Source: Porphyromonas macacae DSM 20710 = JCM 13914 (GTDB lineage: Bacteria; Bacteroidota; Bacteroidia; Bacteroidales; Porphyromonadaceae). From it: a stretch of DNA of 64,000 bases. The translations under genes and the position numbers were made by a program. Of this stretch, positions 24,670 through 53,900 are shown piece by piece. The stretch is from positions 186,001 to 250,000 of the forward strand of contig NZ_KB904124.1 in NCBI RefSeq assembly GCF_000379945.1, written 5' to 3'. A model generated the notes under the pieces. It saw only the letters and a program-made list of their open reading frames with translations. It did not search any database and was not told where the DNA came from. Numbering within the stretch: the first letter of the stretch is position 1; every line of letters begins with the position of its first letter.

Positions 24670-25539
24670 TCAGTTTAATGAGGGATCATTGAAGGTATCG
24701 CCCTGACGGAAGTCGCCGGTCAGAAATCCTTTCTTGAACCATGTCATCCGTTGAGCCGATGTGCCGTGTGTAAAGGTATCGGGGGCTGCCCTTCCGTTGG
24801 CTGCTTTTTGCAGCGTGTCGTCACCGATTGCATTGGCTGCGTTGAGGGCTTCTTCCAAATCTCCCTCTTCCAATTCTATGATGCCCATTTTTTGTGCATA
24901 GTGTGCCCAAAGCCCGGCGAAGAAATCGGCTTGCAACTCTACTTTTACATTCAGTTTGTTGTATTCTTTTTGACTGATTTTTCCGCGCTGGCTATGGAAT
25001 GCGTCCAGAATACCCAACAGCTTTTGCACATGATGTCCCACCTCGTGAGCCGTAACGTATGCCATGGCCAGATCTCCCGGAGCTTTGAAACGTTCGGATA
25101 GCTCCTTAAAGAAGGAAAGATCTATGTATACTTTTATATCCGCCGGACAGTAAAACGGCCCCATCTGTGCCATTGCCCCGCCGCATCCCGAGTGAGTCTG
25201 GTCGGTGTAAACCACCAAAGTCGGTTTCTCATAGTTTTTGTTTAACTGTTTGTTGAAAATATCTGTCCAGACATCGTTACAACTGTTAAAGACGTTGAGT
25301 GTGAAATCTTTCCACTCTTCATATTCATGCGCACGACCGGGGTCTATGGTTTCTTCTTTGGCACGGTCGCCCATGGCCGTATTGGCTATTTCCAGCAGTT
25401 TGCCCGGGTCTTGCCCTAAAAAGAGAGCCAATAATAAAACGATGATACCTCCGATACCGCCCAAAACATTCTTGGAACTGACACGACCTCTGCGGTCATC
25501 GAAATTTCCGGTATCGTTATTTTTCTTAATCCATTTCAT
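24670..25539 (-). CDS. Neutral zinc metallopeptidase family protein (YpfJ-like)
   Basis: 289-residue membrane-anchored protein. Residues near 28-45 form one hydrophobic helix (GGIGGIIVLLLALFLG). The extracytoplasmic domain has the zinc motif HEVGHH at 165-170 and the downstream ELQADFFAGLWAHY, where the glutamate is the likely third metal ligand. This family (putative neutral zinc metallopeptidase) is widespread, but substrates are unknown. An ATG three codons upstream (25548) is also possible. Stands alone between ppk1 and an epimerase gene. Confidence 0.9.
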   Translation of the reverse strand: MKWIKKNNDTGNFDDRRGRVSSKNVLGGIGGIIVLLLALFLGQDPGKLLEIANTAMGDRAKEETIDPGRAHEYEEWKDFTLNVFNSCNDVWTDIFNKQLNKNYEKPTLVVYTDQTHSGCGGAMAQMGPFYCPADIKVYIDLSFFKELSERFKAPGDLAMAYVTAHEVGHHVQKLLGILDAFHSQRGKISQKEYNKLNVKVELQADFFAGLWAHYAQKMGIIELEEGDLEEALNAANAIGDDTLQKAANGRAAPDTFTHGTSAQRMTWFKKGFLTGDFRQGDTFNDPSLN

Positions 25540-25603
25540 AGCTGTCAAAAATTAGAAAGGTAAAAAATTACCGGATCATCGATACTCCGATATACCTCCG
25601 GTG

Positions 25604-26626
25604 TTACAAAAGACCTTTTTCTTTAGCGTAGTTTATTGTTTCTTTAAGTCCGCTGCGCAGGTCATACTTGGGGGTAAAACCCAGCTCGAAGAGCGGGGTG
25701 GCGTCACAGAGCCAGTTTCGCTGGCTCAAAATGGTATACTTGTCTTTGTTCAGAGGAGAGAGGCGGCCTGTCAAACGTCCCCACCATTCTCCTATCTGGC
25801 AGGCTATCCGCACAATACCGAGCGGACAGCGAAGATGCAGTACATGTTTTTTTTGCAGCAGTTCCTGTGCCAGTTTGCCATACTCGATATCCGTATAGCT
25901 GTTGCCGTCGCTGATTATATAGCTTTTGCCCTGTGCCTCAGGTTGCTCGAGCAGGAAAAGCGCAGCCCTCGCCACATCTCCGGCATGGATGAATGTCAGT
26001 AACTGAGGTTTGGGGCCGGTGATGAAATCAAAACCTTTGGCGATGGCTTGCAGGCTCAGAAGATAGTCCCGGTCTCCGGGACCGTAGACCCCTGTGGGCT
26101 GTAGTATGATATAGGGCAAGCCACTGTCGGTAACCTCACGTTCGGAAAGCAGTTTGCTTTTGCCGTAAGCATTCGCCGGTTTTTGCTGTTGGCTGCTTTT
26201 GAGCGGCTCATACGCTCCCGCAGGGGGGCCATAGCTCCCCATACTGCTCATCAGGAGGAAAAGCTCCGGCGGAACAGCAGCTGCAGCCAGTCCGCGTGCA
26301 AAGCGTCCTGTCTGTTCGGCATTGATGCGAACAAATTCTTTAGCATCTTTAGCCTTGGTGATCCCCGCATTGTGTATCACATAGTGCCATGCGGGTTCTC
26401 CGGCGGTTGGTGCCGTTTCGTTGGCAAGCCTGGCAACAGCTTTTTCCGAACGGTAATCTATTTCTATGAAATGTAATCCCGGCTGTGTCAAACGTGAGCG
26501 GTTACTGTTTTTTCTAACCGCAACCCATACTTCGTATCCCCGTTTGTATGCTTCTTCCGCCAAATAGCCGCCGATAAAACCGCTGGCTCCGGTAATTAGA
26601 ACTCTTTTCGTGGTGGCATTGAGCAT
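25604..26626 (-). CDS. NAD-dependent epimerase/dehydratase family protein
   Basis: 340-residue extended SDR. The N-terminal motif TGASGFIGGYLAE binds NAD(P), and YGKSK is the catalytic Tyr-Lys pair. The position of the conserved Ser is covered by LLMSSMGSYGPP. Members act on nucleotide sugars or on sterol/dihydroflavonol-like substrates; this one could be either. It is 14 bp downstream of the MlaD-family gene on the same strand, a context that suggests an envelope lipid or sugar role but does not prove it. Confidence 0.88.
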   Translation of the reverse strand: MLNATTKRVLITGASGFIGGYLAEEAYKRGYEVWVAVRKNSNRSRLTQPGLHFIEIDYRSEKAVARLANETAPTAGEPAWHYVIHNAGITKAKDAKEFVRINAEQTGRFARGLAAAAVPPELFLLMSSMGSYGPPAGAYEPLKSSQQQKPANAYGKSKLLSEREVTDSGLPYIILQPTGVYGPGDRDYLLSLQAIAKGFDFITGPKPQLLTFIHAGDVARAALFLLEQPEAQGKSYIISDGNSYTDIEYGKLAQELLQKKHVLHLRCPLGIVRIACQIGEWWGRLTGRLSPLNKDKYTILSQRNWLCDATPLFELGFTPKYDLRSGLKETINYAKEKGLL

Positions 26627-26640
26627 ACAACAACGATTTT

Positions 26641-27516
26641 TTAGAAAACAGAGAAGTGTACGTAACGATTAGGATTTTTCTTAATATCGCTAAGCAGGCT
26701 GTCTGCGCTGTTTACCATGGCATTCAATCGATCGTACAACCCCGGATCGTTGAGCAGTTTACCCGCTGTGCCTTTGGTATCCTTAAGCTGCTCCGTAACC
26801 AACCGGAGATTGTTCGTTGTCTCTTCTATGTTTTTGATTAAAACCTTAATATCGGAGTTCTGAATGTCGTTCGTAATTTTAATGGCATTGTCGGACACCT
26901 GCTCGATATTTGCAATGACCGGCGGAAGGCGTTCTCCGGTCACACGCAATGCCTTGGCCAGCTCTTCAATTTGTTTCGTTGTGTTACGTATGTATCCTAC
27001 AGCTTCAGCAATGTCGGGATTGTTCACTTGCCTGTTCACACCGCGAACCATCGAGTCTATATGCGGCATCAGGCTGTCGATCATGGGTAAAATCTTTTCC
27101 TGTGCAATAGACATCAGATCTGTTTGCATGTTGATCGCCTCCAATTCACCTCTCGATTCTAAATACTCCGGGCTTTTGCCCATTTCAATGATAAGATCGG
27201 CTCCGCTGAGCGGATTGAGTTTGATGCGTACTTTGGAGTCTTTGGGCAATTTGACTTTCTTGTTGATACTGAGTTCTACTTTTATTCCTCTGTTATTTTC
27301 GAAGTCGAAATCCATTTTACGAACCACACCCACTTTATATCCTTCGATCAGGATGGGGGTGGATACGGTAAGCCCGTTGACTTTACTGAAAGTCGTATAG
27401 TAGGGGGTTTCTGAACTGAAGATATTAATCCCTTTCAGAAATTTGATACCAAAAAAGAGCAATCCCAACGCCACCAGCGTGAGAATCCCGATTTTAAGCG
27501 TGTTGATGTTTCTCAT
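26641..27516 (-). CDS. MlaD/MCE-family lipid transport protein
   Basis: 291-residue protein with one N-terminal membrane helix (LKIGILTLVALGLLFFGIKFLKG in part) and an MCE domain (about 38-118: TTFSKVNGLTVSTPILIEGYKVG and LNPLSGADLIIEMG). A long helical C-terminal region follows. MCE proteins form ring or tube structures that move phospholipids between membranes, usually with an ABC transporter. No MlaE/MlaF genes are adjacent here, so partners are elsewhere. It starts 21 bp after the amidase gene ends, a pairing common in Bacteroidetes. Confidence 0.92.
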   Translation of the reverse strand: MRNINTLKIGILTLVALGLLFFGIKFLKGINIFSSETPYYTTFSKVNGLTVSTPILIEGYKVGVVRKMDFDFENNRGIKVELSINKKVKLPKDSKVRIKLNPLSGADLIIEMGKSPEYLESRGELEAINMQTDLMSIAQEKILPMIDSLMPHIDSMVRGVNRQVNNPDIAEAVGYIRNTTKQIEELAKALRVTGERLPPVIANIEQVSDNAIKITNDIQNSDIKVLIKNIEETTNNLRLVTEQLKDTKGTAGKLLNDPGLYDRLNAMVNSADSLLSDIKKNPNRYVHFSVF

Positions 27517-27537
27517 CGTGCTTTTTATTAATTAGGA

Positions 27538-28755
27538 CTATAGATTGTAGATTTCTTGTGTTCGTTTCCCACTTTTATAAACAACAATAAAAGCTTTAGG
27601 ATGTTTCTTTCTGATTTGCCTGCAAAGTTGCTTGGCCTCTTTCAGAGAACCGGTGTCTCCTGCCATATAGCGGTAAATCGATTGTCCCTGATCGCGGGTT
27701 ATTTTCTGCCGGATACCTGAAAACTCTTTGCTGTTTATGGGGATTTTCTTTTTGGATGCCATAAACTGCACTCGGTAGCGGGTGCCTTTTTCCGGAACCT
27801 GTTCTTTTTTTATTTCCTTTTCTGGCGTCTTTTTAGATGTCTTTACGGTTGGCTCTGCGGCTTCATCCTCTTCCTGATTGTCGATCGTTTGTTCCGGTGC
27901 TTCTTCGCGAGGTGTTTCCTGCTCTTCGACCGCAGTCTCCCCGGCGACCTGCTTGCCCTCTTTGTTCATGAACCGTGAGTAATACCTGGAAAAAGCATTG
28001 GCTATATCCCCTGCCGCTTCACGCTGGCCTTTTTCTGAACCGAGGTACCTCGCTTCTTCTTTGTTGGAGAGAAAACCCAGCTCTATCAATACGCTTGGCA
28101 TGGCACTGTAAACCTGCACCCAAAAAACATTTTGCCTGACACCGCGGCTGGGACGCTTGTTGCCAAAATTGTTTTCGATACTTTCTGCCAGATAGATACT
28201 TTGGTCCAAAAATCTGTTCTGAATCATACTGAACATGATGTAGCTTTCGCTGCTTGTCGGATCAAATCCGCGATAGGTGGTTTTATAATCTTCTTCCAGC
28301 AGCATTGCCTTGTTTTCTTTCATGGCTACGCCGAGGTTCTGATTGAATTTTTCCAGCCCCAGCACGTATGTTTCCGATCCGCGTGCCGATCGGGAGCCGG
28401 CACTGTTGCAGTGAATACTCATAAAAACATCGCCTTTATTGTCGTTGGCGAAGTTGCACCGCTGCTGCAGACCGATAAAACGGTCTGTGCTACGGGTGAA
28501 AAGCACACGGACGTCGGGATGTCGCTGTTCGATCATTTTACCCGCCATCGTTCCCACTTTCAGTACCACATCTTTTTCCCTCAGCCCGTTGCTGATGGCT
28601 CCGGGGTCATGCCCCCCGTGTCCGGGGTCGAGGATCAGCGTATATTTTTTCGATGTTTTTCTTTGGGCGTTTGCTTTGTTTGCCCGTATGCCGAGGATAC
28701 CGGACAGGCATAAAACGGCTAAGAAAAAACGAATAAATATTCTATTGTATAGCAT
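27538..28755 (-). CDS. N-acetylmuramoyl-L-alanine amidase with C-terminal SPOR-like domain
   Basis: 405-residue exported cell-wall hydrolase. After a signal peptide (about 1-31) comes an Amidase_3 domain with zinc-binding LDPGHGGHDPGAI, the NxxxADxFxSIHxN-type segment (KGDVFMSIHCNSAGS) and the catalytic LIELGFLSNKEEARYL. A Glu/Pro/Lys-rich linker (about 275-320) leads to a C-terminal domain (YRVQFMASKKKIPINSKEF) resembling SPOR domains that bind denuded glycan at the septum. It cleaves the lactyl-L-Ala bond during cell separation (family role). A -7 box TACATTTG is 29 bp upstream. Confidence 0.93.
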   Translation of the reverse strand: MLYNRIFIRFFLAVLCLSGILGIRANKANAQRKTSKKYTLILDPGHGGHDPGAISNGLREKDVVLKVGTMAGKMIEQRHPDVRVLFTRSTDRFIGLQQRCNFANDNKGDVFMSIHCNSAGSRSARGSETYVLGLEKFNQNLGVAMKENKAMLLEEDYKTTYRGFDPTSSESYIMFSMIQNRFLDQSIYLAESIENNFGNKRPSRGVRQNVFWVQVYSAMPSVLIELGFLSNKEEARYLGSEKGQREAAGDIANAFSRYYSRFMNKEGKQVAGETAVEEQETPREEAPEQTIDNQEEDEAAEPTVKTSKKTPEKEIKKEQVPEKGTRYRVQFMASKKKIPINSKEFSGIRQKITRDQGQSIYRYMAGDTGSLKEAKQLCRQIRKKHPKAFIVVYKSGKRTQEIYNL

Positions 28756-29015: not shown

Positions 29016-29021
29016 AAAATT

Positions 29022-29143
29022 CTCTGCCTGATGGTTGAAAATTCTTCAGGCAAAGAAAAAAAATCCAAGTTAACTTCGTTGAAAATCCATTGCGCTACGG
29101 ATTTTTATCCGTTGGCTGAAGAATTTTGAACCATCAGGCAGAG
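29022..29143. repeat. Palindromic MITE-like element, copy 1
   Basis: Terminal inverted repeats of about 28 bp (29022-29049 and 29116-29143) with one or two mismatches enclose a core. The core contains an inner hairpin CGGAT-TTTT-ATCCG (29098-29111). The 73 bases 29025-29097 are identical to 47426-47498. No coding capacity, so any mobility would depend on a transposase elsewhere. Confidence 0.85.
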
Positions 29144-46572: not shown

Positions 46573-47325
46573 TCAGATAGAGCGAAGCAGGTTCACCGTT
46601 TCCCGCACAAGTTCGGGGTGAGTGGTCGGTTGTGCATATTCGTCGATAATCACAGTGCCGCCCATGCTGACATTGCTTCGCCGATATTGCATGGCGCTTG
46701 GCACATCGGTTCTTAAAGAGCAGTGAAACTGATTGATGCCGGTTTGCCGTGCCAATTCGGCTATGTTGGATGCTCTTACTCCACTGCCTGCCATGATGCC
46801 GATGCGTCCTGCAGCACGGTACACCAGTCGCCCGATCAGAGCAGCTCCCTCCGGTGCCGTGGGGGCACATCCGCTGGTAAGAATACGGTTGAATCCTCCG
46901 GCAGTGATAATCTCCTCCAACATCCTTTCGGGGTCGGCACACATATCGAAAGCCCGGTGAAAAGTTACGGCCATCCCTTCGGCCGCCTCCAGCAATATGC
47001 CGTTAGCCCGTTTATCGTAAAATCCCTCGGGTGTCAGACAACCGAAAACAACACCGTCGGCTTTCAACTCCCTTGCCACCCGGATATCATAAACCATCTG
47101 TCGCAGTTCCGTATCGCTGTAAAAGAAGTCGCCGGCACGTGGTCGGATAATGACATGTACAGGAATATCTATTGTTTCGCATGCTTCTTTAATCATGCCC
47201 GCAGAGGGAGTTGTCCCCCCCTCGGGAATACCCTGGCAGAGCTCTACGCGGGTGGCTCCGCCCTCTTGTGCCGCTATACAGCTGTCCACCGAGTTGGCAC
47301 AAATTTCCAGTTCGAAGTTTTTCAT
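46573..47325 (-). CDS. cutC: CutC family protein
   Basis: 250-residue TIM-barrel protein. Family motifs ELEICANSVDSCIAAQEGG, GGTTPSAGMI, VIIRPRAGDF, VTFHRAFDMC and LTSGCAPTAPEG are present. CutC was named for copper tolerance in E. coli, but its chemistry is unresolved and the copper link is disputed. Stands alone on the minus strand between plus-strand genes; the island to its right begins with MITE-like copy 2. Confidence 0.93.
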   Translation of the reverse strand: MKNFELEICANSVDSCIAAQEGGATRVELCQGIPEGGTTPSAGMIKEACETIDIPVHVIIRPRAGDFFYSDTELRQMVYDIRVARELKADGVVFGCLTPEGFYDKRANGILLEAAEGMAVTFHRAFDMCADPERMLEEIITAGGFNRILTSGCAPTAPEGAALIGRLVYRAAGRIGIMAGSGVRASNIAELARQTGINQFHCSLRTDVPSAMQYRRSNVSMGGTVIIDEYAQPTTHPELVRETVNLLRSI

Positions 47326-47425
47326 CGGGAAAGTAGTGTTAATCCGGACTTTTATTCCGGTAAAGGTAGCGATAAGAAATAATCTCTAAAGAAATAAGGC
47401 AAAACAGAGGTGGCGGAAAATCCGT

Positions 47426-47519
47426 TGCCTGATGGTTGAAAATTCTTCAGGCAAAGAAAAAAAATCCAAGTTAACTTCGTTGAAAATCCATTGCGCTAAG
47501 AATTTTCAACCATATTGCA
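47426..47519. repeat. Palindromic MITE-like element, copy 2 (shortened)
   Basis: Bases 47426-47498 are identical to 29025-29097 over 73 bp. The right end is a shorter inverted repeat (AAGAATTTTCAACCAT) and the inner CGGAT hairpin of copy 1 is missing, consistent with an internal deletion. It lies between cutC and the zinc-ribbon gene. Confidence 0.85.
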
Positions 47520-47573
47520 ACTATTCGAGCTTATAAGAGTTAAGCTCAGTATTTTCATGTAAACTTGTGTAAA

Positions 47574-48014
47574 TCATCGTTCCGAAAGATATTGTCTTAT
47601 TTCGTTAGCAGTCAATCTTCTCACCTGCGTATCTGTAAATTCTCTATATTCTTCCATGCGGAAAAGCGGACTCATGCCATCGCATCTCTTCCCTTTGTTT
47701 CTTCTTAAGTATAATTCCAAATCTTCCTCGTCTGCAAAGATTTTATACGTGCTTTTTCCTTTCCCGTCCTTTATTTCATAAATACCGCATGGTTTCCTGT
47801 TCGTGTAGTCTGCGGTCCGCAAATACAGCTTTGCAATTTCTAAGGATTTGAACGGGAAATTCCATCTTTGCAATCCTCTTTTCGGGTCGTGCTCTATGCA
47901 GATACAGCGACCACAGGTGCCGCATATATATTGTGTGTGGTTTTCCAGGCAGTCCGAAGGATTGAGTAGTGGTGTAATTCTATTTCGGTCGCTATAGCAT
48001 TCTTTACATATCAT
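47574..48014 (-). CDS. Uncharacterised zinc-ribbon-like protein
   Basis: 146-residue cytoplasmic protein. Two CxxC pairs (Cys3/Cys6 and Cys31/Cys34, plus Cys37) at the N-terminus form a likely zinc knuckle: MICKECYSD and YICGTCGRCICIEHD. The rest is alpha/beta with YEIKDGKGKSTYKIFADEED. I do not recognise a named family. The codons and motifs look real, and the start is preceded by an AT-rich leader. It could bind nucleic acid. It lies between MITE copy 2 and the AT-rich gap before two unknown genes, on the opposite strand, so a joint role with them is not shown. Confidence 0.8.
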   Translation of the reverse strand: MICKECYSDRNRITPLLNPSDCLENHTQYICGTCGRCICIEHDPKRGLQRWNFPFKSLEIAKLYLRTADYTNRKPCGIYEIKDGKGKSTYKIFADEEDLELYLRRNKGKRCDGMSPLFRMEEYREFTDTQVRRLTANEIRQYLSER

Positions 48015-48705
48015 AATGAAGTTATTTTTTTATTTTCTTGATGATTGTTAGGTGAATTATTCAATAAAACAACAATGTAGCGATGACTACATGCGTCGGT
48101 ATTTTGTTCGGCGTTTTTATTTCTACATGACTGTTGACTTATTTGCACTTCTTACGAAACTTCACCAATATAACCATTTTAGTTTGCCTGTCGCAAGTAT
48201 AGAGAGTTGTTATTACTATATCTGTTTGTTGTTGTCTAAATCTTTATTGATAATTTATACGGAGCCATACCGCTCAAAAGAGCAATTGCCTTACAAAACG
48301 ATTAGATACCTAATTTATTTGATGCGTCTCCTTTGTTAGGCGAGGATTTCTTGCCTTTTTGGATTTAGTGATTGTCTGTTTGCAGATTGCATTTTGTTTT
48401 TTCTTGAATGATATATGTTTGTTTTGTTTTATTTGTTTAATAGGGTCTTTTTTTGGTTTTATTGTTAAAGTTGATTTGGGTAATTGGTTTTCTGTAGTCA
48501 AAAAATAGATGTATTACTGTTTGATTATTAATTTATGTTGGTTCTGTTGTTTGATATTATAAATAAAATATATAAATTTATTAAACGAAGAAAGAAGGGT
48601 GTCGAATAGAATATTTCGTGAGACTGGAGGATGTTAACGGGTTCTGTGCTTTCATGTCTCTATGTTGAAATAGGTAAAACAGGGCCTAATTAAAACTATT
48701 GTATT
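48015..48705. other. 691-bp AT-rich intergenic region
   Basis: Clearly AT-richer than the coding DNA on either side. Short frames (for example a GTG frame at 48052-48339) have no family features. It should hold divergent promoters for the zinc-ribbon gene and the 676-residue protein; none matches the consensus well. Confidence 0.7.
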
Positions 48706-50736
48706 ATGGCGAACGTAACACCCATGGGTTACCCGCATTATGGAGCGGGAACCGTAGAAGTTTTAGTAAAAGATGTGGACGGAGTGGATTACTCATTGCT
48801 GTTTGCTCCTGATCCGAAGAACAATGAATTGCGCAATGCCGGGCTGCCCATGCAGTTTTATTATTACCCAAAGGCTCCCAGGCTTGCTAAATATCCTGAT
48901 GGTCGTTTCAAGTTTTCAATGCAAGTGTTTAAAAGTACCGGAGACGAGTCTACGGTAATTGGTGCCGAGGGGTTGGAAGAAGAGGCCGGTGCTTTCACTT
49001 CTCTTACCAGTACCATTGATGTGCCCGAGCCTATATTGCTAAAGGCGATCGAAAAGTTTAAGACAACCATAGAGAAACAATTTGGAACACACCGGAATGG
49101 TTTGTTGGGGCTTTTCTCTTGGTTAAGGGGAAAAGATAAGGATATAACCCTTGCCAATATTCGTCCTGTTCAATTGATAGAGAATAACATTTCGATGCAC
49201 ATTATCGGAGAGGAAGATCCCGACAAGCAACCCTTTGGCGGCCTTAATCCGTGGACTATGAATGTGCAGGGTAAAGGTGCGGGGCAAACTTTCGGACTCG
49301 GAGAGAATGCTTTTTCCATCATGATGGGGCGTAACTCTGCATCCCTTTTGAAAGCTTCTTTAGAAAGCGGAGGCAATAATCTGGTAATAGAAAATGTCAT
49401 TAAGTATAAGGCCTACATGCCTACTACCATTATTCGTACGGTAGTAAAAACATCAAGAGTGCATAAATACTTTTCGTCCAAACTTTCTGTTCCGGGGAGA
49501 TTTATTGATTTTAACTGGGAGCATGAATACGAAAAGCTACGCACATCGGGGGCTATTGAAACTGAGATTATTGCCGATGAGCAGTTTTCGACCGAAGATC
49601 GCAAGCGATTGGAAGAATCTTTGATTGAAAAACAGAGAGATTATGCTTTTAAGGCTGTCGAGAAGTGTATTTTTGAGCCGGAAATAAAGAAGTTTACCCC
49701 GGCAAAAGAACCGGACACAAAAAGAACGAAAACAATTAGATTTTTGGGTATCTCGGTTTCTATTTCCAGACGCTGTGTCGGATGGAGTCTGAAAACGGCT
49801 TCGGATATTAAGGAGCTTGACTTTAAAGATGAAGTTAAGTTTAGCGGTATTTGCGTGCTTGATTCCAAAATTAGCGGAAACCTGGATCCTCTTATCAATA
49901 AGGGGGATCAGGAAACTTTGAAGCAATACGTTTCCGAGGTGCGTCTTGATGAAGATTTTGCTAAGGTTCATATTATTACCGCTCTTAATGGAAGCCTTGT
50001 CAAGATGGACCGGGATAATGAGATTTTGAACGATAGCCCCGTCAGTCAGGTGGCGATCGAAGTCGGTTATCCGGATTCAAAGGGTAATATGATCTGGAAG
50101 AGTTCGGGGCGCATGATTGCAGAGGGGGGCACCCCTTATATTCAGAAGACCTCACGGAGCGGAAAGACTGTAGATGCGATCTATCCTGCATTGTGGAACT
50201 CTCCGGCTATGGATCAAAACCTGTTTGTTTTTGATTTTGTACGTAATACTCCGCCCAGCGAAGTGACTGTGCGTCAGGAAGTAATGTATGAAAAGGATAA
50301 AAGAGTAAAAGTCAAGGACAAAAAAGCGGAATTCGTGTTTAAGGGTACGAAAGTCTTTATCGAATTACCTGTATTGACATTTGTCGATTATAATCTTTCT
50401 GCCGAAGAGCTTTATGAATGCGATACTCTGGAGGTGACATTGAAGGTTGATAAGATGAGCGCTAAGACATTTAAGTTCAGCTCTGAAAATTTTGGAGATA
50501 TTATCCCTTATAAAGTTTGGTATGAAGCCGGTTACTCTGTCAAACCTACCGAATATAAAGTGAAGTATACCTGTAAGGGTAAGGTCAATAAGGCTTTGAA
50601 GAAGGTAACCATTAATAGTGGCTGGCAGAAACTGGACTATCTTGAGGGGGATGTTATCTTTGAAATCCCTTCAGGAACAGAAAGTCAGAATGAAGCCGTT
50701 CAAGCTATTCGCCGGAAGTTTACCGAAGAGGAATAA
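48706..50736 (+). CDS. Large uncharacterised beta-rich protein 1 of two-gene module
   Basis: 676 residues; no signal peptide and no membrane segment, so probably cytoplasmic or exported by an unusual route. The N-terminus is rich in Gly/Tyr/Pro (MGYPHYGAG). The motif FYYYPKAPRLAK at 51-62 precedes a strand DGRFKFSMQVFK. Further strands include FGLGENAFSIMM and ENVIKYKAYMPTTIIRT. A charged helix at about 290-325 (EDRKRLEESLIEKQRD) interrupts beta-rich sequence that continues to the end. I do not recognise the family and propose no function. It is followed, 133 bp later, by a second large protein with a related motif, on the same strand. Confidence 0.85.
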   Translation: MANVTPMGYPHYGAGTVEVLVKDVDGVDYSLLFAPDPKNNELRNAGLPMQFYYYPKAPRLAKYPDGRFKFSMQVFKSTGDESTVIGAEGLEEEAGAFTSLTSTIDVPEPILLKAIEKFKTTIEKQFGTHRNGLLGLFSWLRGKDKDITLANIRPVQLIENNISMHIIGEEDPDKQPFGGLNPWTMNVQGKGAGQTFGLGENAFSIMMGRNSASLLKASLESGGNNLVIENVIKYKAYMPTTIIRTVVKTSRVHKYFSSKLSVPGRFIDFNWEHEYEKLRTSGAIETEIIADEQFSTEDRKRLEESLIEKQRDYAFKAVEKCIFEPEIKKFTPAKEPDTKRTKTIRFLGISVSISRRCVGWSLKTASDIKELDFKDEVKFSGICVLDSKISGNLDPLINKGDQETLKQYVSEVRLDEDFAKVHIITALNGSLVKMDRDNEILNDSPVSQVAIEVGYPDSKGNMIWKSSGRMIAEGGTPYIQKTSRSGKTVDAIYPALWNSPAMDQNLFVFDFVRNTPPSEVTVRQEVMYEKDKRVKVKDKKAEFVFKGTKVFIELPVLTFVDYNLSAEELYECDTLEVTLKVDKMSAKTFKFSSENFGDIIPYKVWYEAGYSVKPTEYKVKYTCKGKVNKALKKVTINSGWQKLDYLEGDVIFEIPSGTESQNEAVQAIRRKFTEEE

Positions 50737-50869
50737 ACTGAAATAATCAAATGAGGGTGGGGGTGTCCACCCTCTGTTATTTTAATTAAGTAAGTACAAT
50801 CATATAACCTGCAAAAAACGTTATGATGTGTCTTTTGCTGTCCTGTTATATCTTTTTATAAATAATACT

Positions 50870-53131
50870 ATGGATACTGTATATAAAGAAATGGATGGAA
50901 AGCTTGTTCCCATTGAACGGTTTAATTTGGGAAGAGCTAAAGCTTCTGTTGCATATTTCCGGGGGCAGGGTAAAACAGAGGAGGATGAGTTTGCCGTAAG
51001 AAGGCATCCGGTGGTGCAATCTATTCCTTTGGAAAAGGCTCTTTTGGATGGTGATGTGAGAGTAAAACTGCCTGATTCTTTGGAACGCGGAACGGTAATA
51101 AATCGGGAGATTATAAAGCTGCTTGTTGAAAGTGAATCCGATTATCCTGTTGTTGAAAATGTCAGTGCAATTGATCCAAAGAGCACTTTCAAGAATAAAA
51201 AAGGAGACAAGATACTTGTCTTTCCTGAAGTTAAAATTCAGCCGTATGGGGGGAAAGAGTTGTTTTATTATGAAAAAGTCAAAAGCATCGAAAGCAGGGA
51301 AAGCGTACAGGAAGCAGAAAGAAAGCGGTTAAAATATACAGGCCGTATTACGCTTGAATATGAGCTGATTGATCGGGCAGCTCAGAATCAGACCTCTATT
51401 ACGATTCGATTAAGTGAGGCGGTGCTGAATTTGAAGTCCGCAAAAGAAAAGATCTGTATCAGTGGACAGATCGATGAGGATAAGAAGATGTTGACTTTTC
51501 CCATGAAAGACGATGCTGTCGAAATTGCTTTTTGGAATTTGGTTTCAGATTTTCCGGAGAATCATTGTAGTGTGAGTCTTTTCTTCGAGTTTAAGGGATA
51601 TGAGCCGGTGTCAAATAGTATTTTAATTTCCGGTAATCGAGAATTGCTGGCAGAGGTTTTTCTCGAACGGCATAATGAAAGACTTGTGGGATTGACAAAG
51701 GCCAGTTTTTTGCGGGAAATTGCCGTTCCAAAATCAGAAATTCATTTTCAAAGAAGAGAAGGCATATTACGGAAAAATCCACAGAGAAGAGCAATTCGAA
51801 GGGAATTTATAGGGAGTAAAATCTTTTCTGAAGGAGAGATGCAGAAAAGCTCTTTTATCTTAAAGGTCGAGAATACAATAAACTACCCTTGGAAAAGGGA
51901 TAAAAAAGATACGTTGTACCGGGATATCGACGGTGGGATCACTTCCAATCCGTTTAATTTGAATGAAAAGTTTTCAGAGTTCGAACAGTTGTACTGTCCC
52001 GGTATTTCATTTCATGATGTGGCTGTATACAAGTCAAAAACACAGCCGGATTTGTTTCTTCTTTTCCCGAAGAGATATTTCCTGGCGAGAGACAGTGATA
52101 CGTCTTTGCCATGTATGACACTGACGGCTCATTTAAGCGAGGGGGGAAGCGGTAATTATGAGGAAATCTCCAAGGTTTGCTTCTCGTATGCACTCTCTCC
52201 GGATTTGTCGGACTTAAAGCTCTGTGAATTGAAGATGAAATTGTATCAGAACAAATTATTGGATGATGACAGTCCCGGTTATCTGGATCGTATTCGATTT
52301 TGGTATCCGAGTGATATCAATGCCGATTTGGAGGTGACCGGCAATCAAAATATCCTGCCGGAATCTATTCTTGAAGACGGGAGACACTTTGTGGTTTCCT
52401 ATGTCACAGAGAGCCTGTCCGATGCCAGTCTGTTTATCACGGCTCTTAACAATGAAATATCACAATATGCAAATATTACTTTCTCTCATCGCGAGATACG
52501 TAACACTGCTATCATGGAGTTGAATATGGGAAAAACAATAGGCTCTTTTGTGGATATTGTGCCGAATGATGAGAAAAAGACTTTCACAATTACAAATAAT
52601 TCTCTTTCTCCATGCCGTATATCCAACGTTCTGCTCGTTTCAAAGGAAGAGAAACCGTATTATAATCCTGTCTATTTCAGCAATAAATCGAATCTTAAAA
52701 GTAAAGAAAAAAGAGAATTGCCAATCCAAGACTTGACCAGTGGCAGGGAATATCTAAATCCTAAATATATACATCTTGATTATGAAAGTTTGGAAGATAT
52801 CAGTAAAGAGTTTAAACAGGAAATAGCGACAACATCCAATTATCAACGTTCGGTCATAATAAACTTTAGTAAAATTGCGAATAAAAAAATCTGTCGGTTA
52901 TGGGGGGCATTGAAAATAGGGGCGACCGGCAACTCTTTTACTTTTGAAAGAGAGAAATCCGAGTTTTCAACACCTCTTTTATTAAGCTTCATTATCAAAA
53001 ACGAAAAAGCGAATAATAATTATCTGATTTCTTATGAGATAACATATTATGATCAAAATGGTAATGTTTTGAAAAATCAGAAAGAAACATTTGATTATTC
53101 GAAGAGTGGACGTATTGACTTGCGATGCTGA
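50870..53131 (+). CDS. Large uncharacterised beta-rich protein 2 of two-gene module
   Basis: 753 residues from the ATG at 50870 (MDTVYKEMDGKLVPIE); a frame from 50828 would add 14 hydrophobic residues of doubtful reality. No signal peptide or transmembrane helix. Mostly strands and turns throughout, with several sandwich-like segments (for example RITLEYELIDR, CSVSLFFEFKGYEP, LLLSFIIKNE). The motif FLLFPKRYFLAR at about 396-407 matches FYYYPKAPRLAK in protein 1. No catalytic motif was recognised. Lower GC and more Lys/Asn/Ile than the neighbouring core genes suggest accessory origin. Function unknown; a structural or binding role would fit the composition. Confidence 0.85.
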   Translation: MDTVYKEMDGKLVPIERFNLGRAKASVAYFRGQGKTEEDEFAVRRHPVVQSIPLEKALLDGDVRVKLPDSLERGTVINREIIKLLVESESDYPVVENVSAIDPKSTFKNKKGDKILVFPEVKIQPYGGKELFYYEKVKSIESRESVQEAERKRLKYTGRITLEYELIDRAAQNQTSITIRLSEAVLNLKSAKEKICISGQIDEDKKMLTFPMKDDAVEIAFWNLVSDFPENHCSVSLFFEFKGYEPVSNSILISGNRELLAEVFLERHNERLVGLTKASFLREIAVPKSEIHFQRREGILRKNPQRRAIRREFIGSKIFSEGEMQKSSFILKVENTINYPWKRDKKDTLYRDIDGGITSNPFNLNEKFSEFEQLYCPGISFHDVAVYKSKTQPDLFLLFPKRYFLARDSDTSLPCMTLTAHLSEGGSGNYEEISKVCFSYALSPDLSDLKLCELKMKLYQNKLLDDDSPGYLDRIRFWYPSDINADLEVTGNQNILPESILEDGRHFVVSYVTESLSDASLFITALNNEISQYANITFSHREIRNTAIMELNMGKTIGSFVDIVPNDEKKTFTITNNSLSPCRISNVLLVSKEEKPYYNPVYFSNKSNLKSKEKRELPIQDLTSGREYLNPKYIHLDYESLEDISKEFKQEIATTSNYQRSVIINFSKIANKKICRLWGALKIGATGNSFTFEREKSEFSTPLLLSFIIKNEKANNNYLISYEITYYDQNGNVLKNQKETFDYSKSGRIDLRC

Positions 53132-53468
53132 AGACAAGAACCTTTCTTTTCATGTAGATTGATACGCTTGGTGTGCGGTGATTGGCGGTGTGCGAGAGAG
53201 CCTGTTTTTATGTTTTGAGTCGTCTTTAAGGGATAATGCCGATGGAATATCGGAACAAGATAAAAGGCCAGGTCTTTCAATTTTGTTCGGCAAGGACAAT
53301 CGTTATTTTCGGAGTAAAGTAAAAACAGGTGTTTGAATGTTGTAAAAAGGAGTCTTCAAATAGCTGTTATGCACGCTGTTAATCCATTACATTTACTAAC
53401 TTTGTGGGAAATTAGAAACACGACTGTCTCCGAGCTTATATCTAATCTATAGGGATTGTTAGAAATAA
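53132..53468. other. 337-bp intergenic region
   Basis: No gene; AT-rich and G-poor stretches mark the right end of the accessory module. A TAACTTTG -7 box near the right end belongs to the dCMP deaminase gene. Confidence 0.7.
53397..53404 (+). promoter_or_regulatory. -7 box of the dCMP deaminase gene
   Basis: TAACTTTG, 64 bp before the start codon. -33 not clear. Confidence 0.5.
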
Positions 53469-53900
53469 ATGACAGAAAAGGAAAAAAAGCAGTTGGCCTT
53501 AGACCGGCGCTATCTGCGTATGGCACAAATATGGTCCGAAAACTCATACTGTAAACGCCGGCAGGTGGGTGCCCTGATCGTTAAAGATCAAATGATTATA
53601 TCCGATGGCTATAACGGAACACCGTCAGGGTTTGAAAATGTTTGTGAAGATGAACATGGGGTAACCAAACCTTATGTGCTCCATGCAGAGGCCAATGCTA
53701 TTACGAAAGTTGCCGCTTCGACCAATGACAGTCGTGGAGCCACTATTTATATTACCGCTTCTCCCTGTATAGAGTGTGCCAAACTGATTATTCAGTGCGG
53801 TATCGTAAGAGTCGTTTACTGTGAGGAATACCGCCTGACCGAAGGAGTGGATTTACTGAAAAAGGCCGGCGTAGAGGTTGCGTATGTTCCCATCGATTGA
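53469..53900 (+). CDS. dCMP/cytidine deaminase family protein
   Basis: 143-residue zinc deaminase, probably converting dCMP to dUMP. It has the HAEANAI motif with the catalytic Glu and the zinc cysteines in PCIECAKLI. The N-terminal RRYLRMAQIWSENSYCKRRQVGA is typical of ComEB-type dCMP deaminases. It begins a run of plus-strand core genes; the downstream peptidase starts 24 bp later. Confidence 0.92.
   Translation: MTEKEKKQLALDRRYLRMAQIWSENSYCKRRQVGALIVKDQMIISDGYNGTPSGFENVCEDEHGVTKPYVLHAEANAITKVAASTNDSRGATIYITASPCIECAKLIIQCGIVRVVYCEEYRLTEGVDLLKKAGVEVAYVPID

What the first reader, a model, noticed from the sequence alone, without database searches (positions are those of the whole stretch)
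48706..53131. Two-gene module of large, leaderless, beta-rich proteins of unknown function
Two adjacent genes (676 and 753 residues) on one strand have no recognisable family, no signal peptide, no membrane helix and no catalytic motif. Both are mostly beta strands. They stand in an AT-rich island between the cutC/zinc-ribbon region and core genes, and a repeat copy marks the left side. A structural or binding function is possible, but nothing in the sequence identifies it.
Basis: partly seen in the sequence, partly recalled or inferred. Interest (0 to 1): 0.75.

Follow-up and report, generated by a model that had tools for sequence, protein, structure and literature searches.

The report
Unknown paired proteins beside cell-wall hydrolases
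Two neighbouring bacterial genes with no known family turn out to be the core of an undescribed gene module that, in other bacteria, sits directly beside changing lytic enzymes and proteases, which hints at a shared device for deploying such enzymes.

Summary
The two ORFs are real, intact and leaderless, with no match in Pfam, NCBIfam, PADLOC, PHROGs or PDB sequences beyond noise. They are not orphans: gene A (676 aa) has 56-63% identical relatives in 24 loci (23 Flavobacteriaceae, one Prevotellaceae MAG), all with gene B downstream. In 23 of the 24 a hydrolase gene follows (22 of the N-acetylmuramidase type, of which 4 were scanned, and 1 GH46); the 24th ends at its contig end. Profiles tie A to a wider unnamed family (hhalign E 1e-20) in Bacteroidota and Alphaproteobacteria, with Pfam-supported hydrolases in 7 of 11 distant clusters. 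Family members and hydrolases share a compartment: nearly all have Sec-type leaders in four clusters, none in the other clusters scanned. A terminator-like hairpin follows A in 25 of 25 Bacteroidota loci; B abuts the hydrolase gene in 20 of 24; B evolves faster than A. Best reading: A is an abundant structural part and B a scarcer variable partner of a hydrolase-deploying assembly. In this genome the pair looks horizontally acquired and has no linked hydrolase. The mechanism is inferred.

The parts
48706..50736 (+). Gene A, 676 aa, leaderless; abundant-subunit candidate
   Evidence: ORF; 24 relatives at 56-63% identity; intact
48826..49695 (+). Conserved N-terminal region of A (residues 41-330), the part best shared with the wider family (motif FYYYPKAPRLA)
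   Evidence: hhalign A3 vs A6 prob 99.3, E 1e-20, A residues 41-463; A3 vs A5 residues 47-330, prob 96.3, E 1.6e-9
50368..50679 (+). C-terminal beta-sandwich of A (residues 555-658)
   Evidence: block pLDDT 62-92; best VIA match PUD-1/PUD-2 Z 7.0, rmsd 3.5, 103 aligned: a level common by chance, not a family assignment
50753..50774 (+). Terminator-like hairpin between A and B (9 pairs, tail TGTTATTTTA)
   Evidence: pattern scan; best 40-nt fold -16.9 kcal/mol, stronger than the best of 20 mononucleotide shuffles; equivalents after A in all 24 related Bacteroidota loci
50870..53131 (+). Gene B, 753 aa, leaderless; chain of Ig-like domains, fast-evolving
   Evidence: ORF; relatives at 35-41% identity downstream of A in 24 of 24 loci; model
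52019..52249 (+). B residues 384-460 (QPDLFLLFPKRYFLARD), possible diverged copy of the A-family start motif
   Evidence: weak: hhalign A4 vs A8 E 4e-4 but probability only 34; A4 vs A6 did not support it
52841..53128 (+). C-terminal Ig-like domain of B (residues 658-753)
   Evidence: VIA Z 7.5 (2yjl_C, rmsd 3.4, 90 aligned); teneurin, FN3 and CDC domain 4 rows lie within about 1.5 Z: a common sandwich

Best explanation
A and B are the non-enzymatic core of an undescribed multi-protein module whose job is to hold, target or deploy a hydrolytic enzyme encoded next to it. A is an abundant, slowly evolving structural subunit. B, a chain of Ig-like domains made in smaller amount, is the variable partner, and its gene usually abuts the enzyme gene. 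The enzyme slot is exchangeable: muramidase, chitosanase, amidase, CHAP-PG_binding, astacin, papain with its inhibitor, caspase, PLD-like. The likely use is attack on, or regulated opening of, cell envelopes. Shown here: the family, the co-occurrence, the hydrolase association, the shared compartment (by hydropathy), the hairpin, and the rate contrast. Inferred: that the proteins bind each other, that A is more abundant, that B targets, and that the purpose is antagonistic or lytic. In this genome the pair was probably acquired horizontally and lacks a linked hydrolase, so it may work with an unlinked enzyme or be a reduced remnant.
For: A-B adjacency in 24 of 24 loci; a hydrolase-type gene next in 23 of 24 (L021 ends at its contig end). 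Of the 22 muramidase-type genes 4 were scanned and all 4 match PF11860 and PG_binding_1; the other 18 were recognised by length and N-terminus; the GH46 gene of L023 was scanned. Distant clusters: hydrolases above Pfam cut-off in 7 of 11: Deinococcus, G207, Paracoccus, G534 and G633, G703 and G675; Amidase_2 below cut-off in G325 (23.4 of 26 bits) and G698 (19.0 of 26). Family link: A3 vs A6 E 1e-20; a profile built without A finds the window gene at E 6.7e-11. Compartment. Hairpin after A in 25 of 25 Bacteroidota loci, against 2 of 21 other same-strand gaps. B-hydrolase junction within -4 to +4 nt in 20 of 24. ENC lower for A than B in 23 of 23. Mean pairwise identity 0.81 for A, 0.65 for B.
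Against: No physical interaction or activity is shown. No hydrolase lies beside the pair in the window; no relative of the Flavobacterium muramidase is in the own genome, nor a caspase. Two of 11 distant clusters (Pararhizobium, G710) have no Pfam-supported hydrolase. The Deinococcus locus lacks the hairpin. The codon case is mixed: by C-ending codons A (0.310) is about average for flanking genes (0.288; mean percentile 0.56), only B is low (0.236); in the window A is not more biased than B (ENC 54.3 vs 53.3). No export route for leaderless peptidoglycan hydrolases was found. The link of B to distant clusters is weak.
Confidence: 0.42

Rival explanations
1. A programmed cell-death or phage-defence module: proteases (caspase, trypsin, papain) or lysins are the killing part, A and B sense infection or hold them inactive.
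For: Caspases in the Deinococcus, G207 and F. amniphilum loci, and in the last a trypsin-like gene just under its cut-offs; the Paracoccus cluster lies next to trypsin-like (as annotated), EAD1 and AAA_16 genes, a combination like that of published conflict systems (PMC7159879, section 32 read); patchy distribution.
Against: No PADLOC match; the commonest enzyme in the loci read is a cell-wall hydrolase; four clusters look secreted as a whole, which does not fit an intracellular sensor; no caspase in the own genome.
Confidence: 0.2
2. A cell-envelope housekeeping or matrix module: A and B form a surface or periplasmic layer and the hydrolases remodel the wall around it.
For: Ig-like chains, PG_binding_1 domains on several enzymes, secreted-looking versions, up to five family paralogues per cluster.
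Against: Most versions read have no leader; presence is very patchy (1 of 295 in the order; 7 of 299 in Flavobacteriaceae), which is unlike housekeeping; proteases and PLD-like genes do not fit.
Confidence: 0.18
3. Effectors or structural parts of a contractile injection system (type VI, eCIS) or a domesticated phage tail.
For: Leaderless proteins with leaderless lysins; papain next to a chagasin-type inhibitor in one locus resembles toxin and immunity; TssC is present in 5 of 17 genome handles and a sheath match (PF04984) in 10 of 17, 5 of them over cut-off.
Against: The own genome has neither TssC nor a sheath match; TssC is absent in 12 of 17 handles (the 17 handles are about 15 distinct genomes, since G387 and G1006 give identical places and G473 and G1007 appear to be one species). 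No phage or viral-contig relative and only noise in PHROGs.
Confidence: 0.07
4. In this genome the pair is a non-functional horizontally acquired remnant.
For: Foreign codon usage: C-ending FYNI codons 0.27 and 0.25, the two lowest values in the window, against a mean of 0.58 (minimum 0.31) in 28 other ORFs of 250 aa or more; no linked hydrolase; A absent from 25 of 25 congeners.
Against: Both frames are full length, the hairpin is kept, conserved residues are kept.
Confidence: 0.13

Closest known systems
NTP-dependent conflict systems with EAD1, trypsin and caspase (Kaur et al. 2020, PMC7159879)
   Same: Exchangeable proteases and peptidoglycan-attacking enzymes in one neighbourhood; the Paracoccus cluster lies directly beside such genes
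   Different: A and B carry no EAD, STAND or NTPase domain by Pfam and I saw no such gene beside the window or Flavobacterium modules, though not every neighbour was scanned; the paper's main text has no 'muramidase', 'Flavobacterium' or 'Porphyromonas'
Polymorphic toxin or type VI effector modules (recalled)
   Same: Shared core plus exchangeable enzyme; one possible inhibitor gene (I42 beside papain)
   Different: Enzymes are separate genes, not fused C-terminal tips; no immunity gene recognised elsewhere; no TssC in the own genome
Phage lysis cassettes with muramidase (recalled)
   Same: PG_binding_1 plus PF11860 muramidase without leader
   Different: A and B have no phage relatives in the collections searched
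Bacterial gasdermin with caspase-type protease (recalled)
   Same: Caspase next to a large partner in some loci
   Different: No protease beside the pair in the window; no gasdermin comparison was run

Membership tests
Any curated protein family | Match of A or B to Pfam, NCBIfam, PHROGs or PADLOC above noise or cut-off | tested here: not met
   likewise no match over cut-off for 8 distant A-family members in Pfam and 8 distant A- or B-like proteins in NCBIfam
Wider A family (defined here) | Profile match over the N-terminal ~280-420 residues | tested here: met
   E 1e-20; E 6.7e-11 with a profile that lacks A
Type VI secretion effector | TssC in the same genome | tested here: not met
   matches in 5 of 17 handles, none in the own genome; the 14 control genomes did not ring, but the 5 hits show that the search works
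Contractile tail or eCIS | Sheath protein PF04984 in the same genome | tested here: not met
   none in the own genome; 10 of 17 handles have a match, 5 over cut-off
Type IX secretion cargo (recalled definition) | Sec signal peptide | tested here: not met
   hydropathy scan of window A and B
Caspase-linked death module | Caspase gene in the module or genome | tested here: not met
   none in the own genome; 2 of 9 genomes match (G207 and G1005, the F. amniphilum genome)
EAD conflict system | EAD domain protein in the module | tested here: inconclusive
   EAD1 beside the Paracoccus cluster; A and B have none; not every neighbour was scanned
Toxin with immunity gene | Cognate inhibitor beside the enzyme | tested here: inconclusive
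   I42 inhibitor beside papain in one locus; no systematic search elsewhere
Cholesterol-dependent cytolysin / MACPF / aegerolysin | Shared fold | tested here: inconclusive
   C-terminal domains of A and B align with CDC domain 4 or PUD at Z 4.4-7.0, a level common by chance

The most novel reading that the evidence does not exclude
A new class of enzyme-arming machine, spread by horizontal transfer over Bacteroidota, Deinococcota and Alphaproteobacteria, that exists in cytoplasmic and secreted forms: a high-copy structural protein (A family, 1 to 5 recognised paralogues per cluster) forms an assembly, a fast-evolving Ig-chain protein (B) aims it, and any of many hydrolases is plugged into the last slot to kill or open cells.
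Probability: 0.25. Interest if true: 0.88.

Novelty: categorically new. Interest (0 to 1): 0.64.

Why it matters
A conserved, multi-phylum protein family with no entry in the main family libraries stands beside peptidoglycan hydrolases and caspase-type proteases. If A and B really arm these enzymes, this would be a new way for bacteria to lyse neighbours, invaders or themselves, with a built-in exchangeable enzyme slot. The shortest versions (A, B and a muramidase in environmental Flavobacterium) make it directly testable.

Tried and rejected
Foldseek of the B model against PDB and BFVD gave only generic multi-Ig chains (TM-score by query length 0.05-0.11); of the low-confidence A model nothing usable. 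VIA second look: only common sandwich folds; no listed family is claimed and no unlisted one excluded. PDB profile searches with A1 and A6: only noise. Rfam on 47300-53600: nothing at gathering threshold. Muramidase family PF11860 in the own genome: no match, but no control rang either, so I repeated it with the F. johnsoniae protein, which rang in 2 of 6 genomes (its own and G305) and not in the window's. Phages, viral contigs and near-identical plasmid DNA: none; the viral search with the wide alignment could not run. A Paraburkholderia hit of B (E 0.1) looks like chance; the PGU19 hit lies in a stretch without annotated genes where one ORF on the opposite reading scores weakly and was left. 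Direct comparison of the G325 A- and B-like proteins with A3/A4 was weak; G325 is placed in the family by the A6 profile (E 2.3e-14), and its B-like gene is not shown to be homologous to B. Three of the six large genes of the G207 row match the A-family profile; the other three are not shown to be related. An empty-site test failed because cutC and the deaminase are not neighbours in the congeners read. Covariation of the hairpin was not counted, because MAFFT put the window copy out of register. Reading the ~362-aa protein of G534/G703/G675 as caspase-like (GHG and GCAA motifs) and the Pararhizobium 588-aa protein as papain-like is by eye only; Pfam gave nothing for the two scanned.

Literature: five searches, seen as listings only, except PMC7159879 (passages and section 32) and PMC12419801 (one passage). 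None of the listings named this family; absence from print is not established, since preprints and most subscription papers are not held.

Full report
What is there. The finding names two + strand ORFs. Both are intact: A 48706-50736 (676 aa) and B 50870-53131 (753 aa). Pfam, NCBIfam and PADLOC give nothing up to E 5; PHROGs (best E 0.029 and 4.5) and PDB sequences (best E 2.1) give noise. A hydropathy scan finds no signal peptide or membrane helix. GC is lower than the window mean (0.427 and 0.385 against 0.464), and codon choice is foreign: the share of C-ending codons for Phe, Tyr, Asn and Ile is 0.27 and 0.25, the two lowest in the window, against a mean of 0.58 and a minimum of 0.31 in 28 other ORFs of 250 aa or more.

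Relatives. In the own neighbourhood A is absent: 1 of 100 relatives has it (the own genome; 25 congeners are among the misses), and 1 of 295 genomes of the order (the own one). A pattern scan of one genome per species, which finds close relatives only, gave 24 loci: 23 Flavobacteriaceae, 22 of them named Flavobacterium, and one Prevotellaceae MAG, at 56-63% identity to A. All 24 have B downstream of A, at 35-41% identity; in two (L016, L017) one small gene lies between them. The A tree places the window with the Prevotellaceae copy (100/99) and then with F. ichthyis (95/94), within the Flavobacterium rows when a Deinococcus relative is the outgroup; these are long branches, whose place the tool calls unsure. 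The B tree does not resolve the window's place. With the codon data this points to horizontal acquisition; donor and date are not known.

The wider family. A Deinococcus plasmid protein matches A at 24% (E 1e-20) and is followed by a protein that aligns with B in order but weakly (E 0.019). A profile of A that holds the Deinococcus row finds members in 5 of 395 genomes of the phylum: the own one, three of one genus, and G207 (E 6.3e-12). In G207, six large genes stand in a row before two caspases; three of the six match the family profile, the other three are not shown to be related. Similar rows are on Pararhizobium and Paracoccus plasmids. A profile of those proteins, without A, matches 5 of 296 genomes: the window gene at E 6.7e-11, two Flavobacterium copies, G207 itself, and one new genome, G325. 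Profile against profile gives probability 99.3, E 1e-20 over residues 41-463 of A. A search of 299 Flavobacteriaceae genomes with a profile that includes G325 gave 7 with members. (That this family is Flavobacteriaceae follows from G387 and G1006, the genome of locus L017, showing identical places.)

The hydrolase association. In 20 of the 24 close loci a 272-274 aa gene starts within -4 to +4 nt of the B stop; in L016 and L017 a 286- or 272-aa gene of that type comes after one 220-aa gene; in L023 a GH46 gene comes 36 nt later; L021 ends at the contig end. Four of the 22 muramidase-type genes were scanned and all four are PF11860 muramidases with PG_binding_1; the other 18 were recognised by length and N-terminus. 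L016 also has a caspase and a trypsin-like gene (just under its cut-offs) upstream of A, and L017 a papain-family gene with a chagasin-type inhibitor gene. In the 11 distant clusters read, a Pfam hydrolase above cut-off is present in 7: Deinococcus caspase-PG_binding, G207 caspases, Paracoccus PLD-like, G534, G703 and G675 CHAP-PG_binding, G633 astacin-C70. Two more, G325 and G698, have an Amidase_2 match below cut-off. Pararhizobium and G710 have none by Pfam in the proteins scanned. The window has none, and the own genome shows no relative of the muramidase (the query's genome and G305 rang, 2 of 6) and no caspase.

One compartment. By the hydropathy scan, 21 of 23 scanned proteins of G325, G698, G633 and G710 (family members, hydrolases and neighbours) pass as Sec-type starts; the two that fall under my threshold of 2.0 (L068 at 1.65, L066_5746 at 1.87) look like leaders by eye. 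In the other clusters scanned (window, five close loci, Deinococcus, G207, G534, G703, Pararhizobium, Paracoccus) no family member or hydrolase passes; one 2-TM protein of G703 passes without being a leader. G675 was not scanned. The family and its enzymes therefore seem to work in the same place.

Amounts. After A every one of 25 Bacteroidota loci has a strong hairpin, -13.6 to -22.0 kcal/mol in the best 40 nt, stronger than the best of 20 mononucleotide shuffles in each case; the Deinococcus locus does not. In L016 and L017 it lies before the extra small gene. Among other same-strand gaps of 50-150 nt in these loci, 2 of 21 reach -13.6. The stem letters differ between genera. The window hairpin is also picked by a terminator pattern scan, which found 12 sites against 3.8 expected in the stretch. 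In 23 close loci (L021 left out) A has a lower effective codon number than B in 23 of 23 (means 41.5 and 47.1; 119 flanking genes 46.5). By C-ending codons, however, A (0.310) is about average (flanks 0.288; mean percentile 0.56) and only B is low (0.236), so the codon support for high expression of A is partial. A is more conserved than B (mean pairwise identity 0.81 against 0.65). Hairpin and rate contrast are what one expects if A is made in larger amount and is structurally constrained, while B, whose gene abuts the enzyme's, is scarcer and variable. In the window itself the ENC contrast is absent (54.3 and 53.3).

Structure. B models as a chain of Ig-like sandwiches (pLDDT 67.9); Foldseek and VIA give only generic multi-Ig matches. 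A models poorly (50.8), with long strands and several helices; its C-terminal sandwich is the only good long part.

Mechanism. I take A and B to be the holding and aiming parts of a hydrolase-deploying assembly. Shown: family, co-occurrence, association, compartment by hydropathy, hairpin, rate contrast. Inferred: binding, stoichiometry of the proteins, targeting, antagonistic or lytic purpose. How leaderless wall hydrolases leave the cell is open: TssC is missing in 12 of 17 genome handles checked (about 15 distinct genomes), the own genome among them, and no sheath gene was found in the own genome, though 10 of the 17 handles have a sheath match. Release by lysis of the producer would fit, but is not tested.

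Comparison with what is known. The nearest published idea is the conflict systems with EAD1, trypsin and peptidoglycan-attacking effectors (PMC7159879, section 32); the Paracoccus cluster lies beside such genes, but A and B carry none of the defining domains. I therefore do not file it there.

Genome context. cutC and the deaminase (so named by recall and by the finding), which flank the island, are not neighbours in the five congeners whose deaminase region was read, and in G022 cutC lies beside homologues of window genes 24670-28755. A 90-bp repeat stands both at 29016-29105 and next to cutC at 47417-47506, so this side of the island looks like a rearrangement point.

Noticed in passing
window 29016-29105 and 47417-47521: A 90-bp repeat (94% identical), part of an imperfect palindrome at 47424-47521, lies beside cutC and again near genes that are cutC's neighbours in congener G022: a likely repeat-linked rearrangement.
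   Followed up: partly
window 47574-48014 (-): 146-aa cysteine-rich, zinc-ribbon-like protein with only sub-threshold Pfam matches (DUF2180 13.7 of 22.2 bits).
   Followed up: no
L021:10083-13097: The Prevotellaceae copy of B carries an extra stretch of about 280 residues of degenerate R-P-T-rich repeats near its N-terminus.
   Followed up: no
L016:10081-10479 and L017:9946-10512: A small gene between A and B repeats a middle domain of A (profile match residues 414-555 in G387, apparently the same genome as L017, E 2e-23).
   Followed up: partly
L063:2115-2684 and L064:17660-18187: A leaderless protein of 175-189 aa with two hydrophobic stretches is part of the CHAP-type clusters and could be a membrane or holin-like part.
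   Followed up: no
L063:1030-2118, L064:18184-19269, L065:18154-19242: A ~362-aa protein at the end of three clusters; two of them, checked by pattern, have GHG and WGCAA motifs that look like a clan CD peptidase by eye; no Pfam match for the one scanned (L063).
   Followed up: partly
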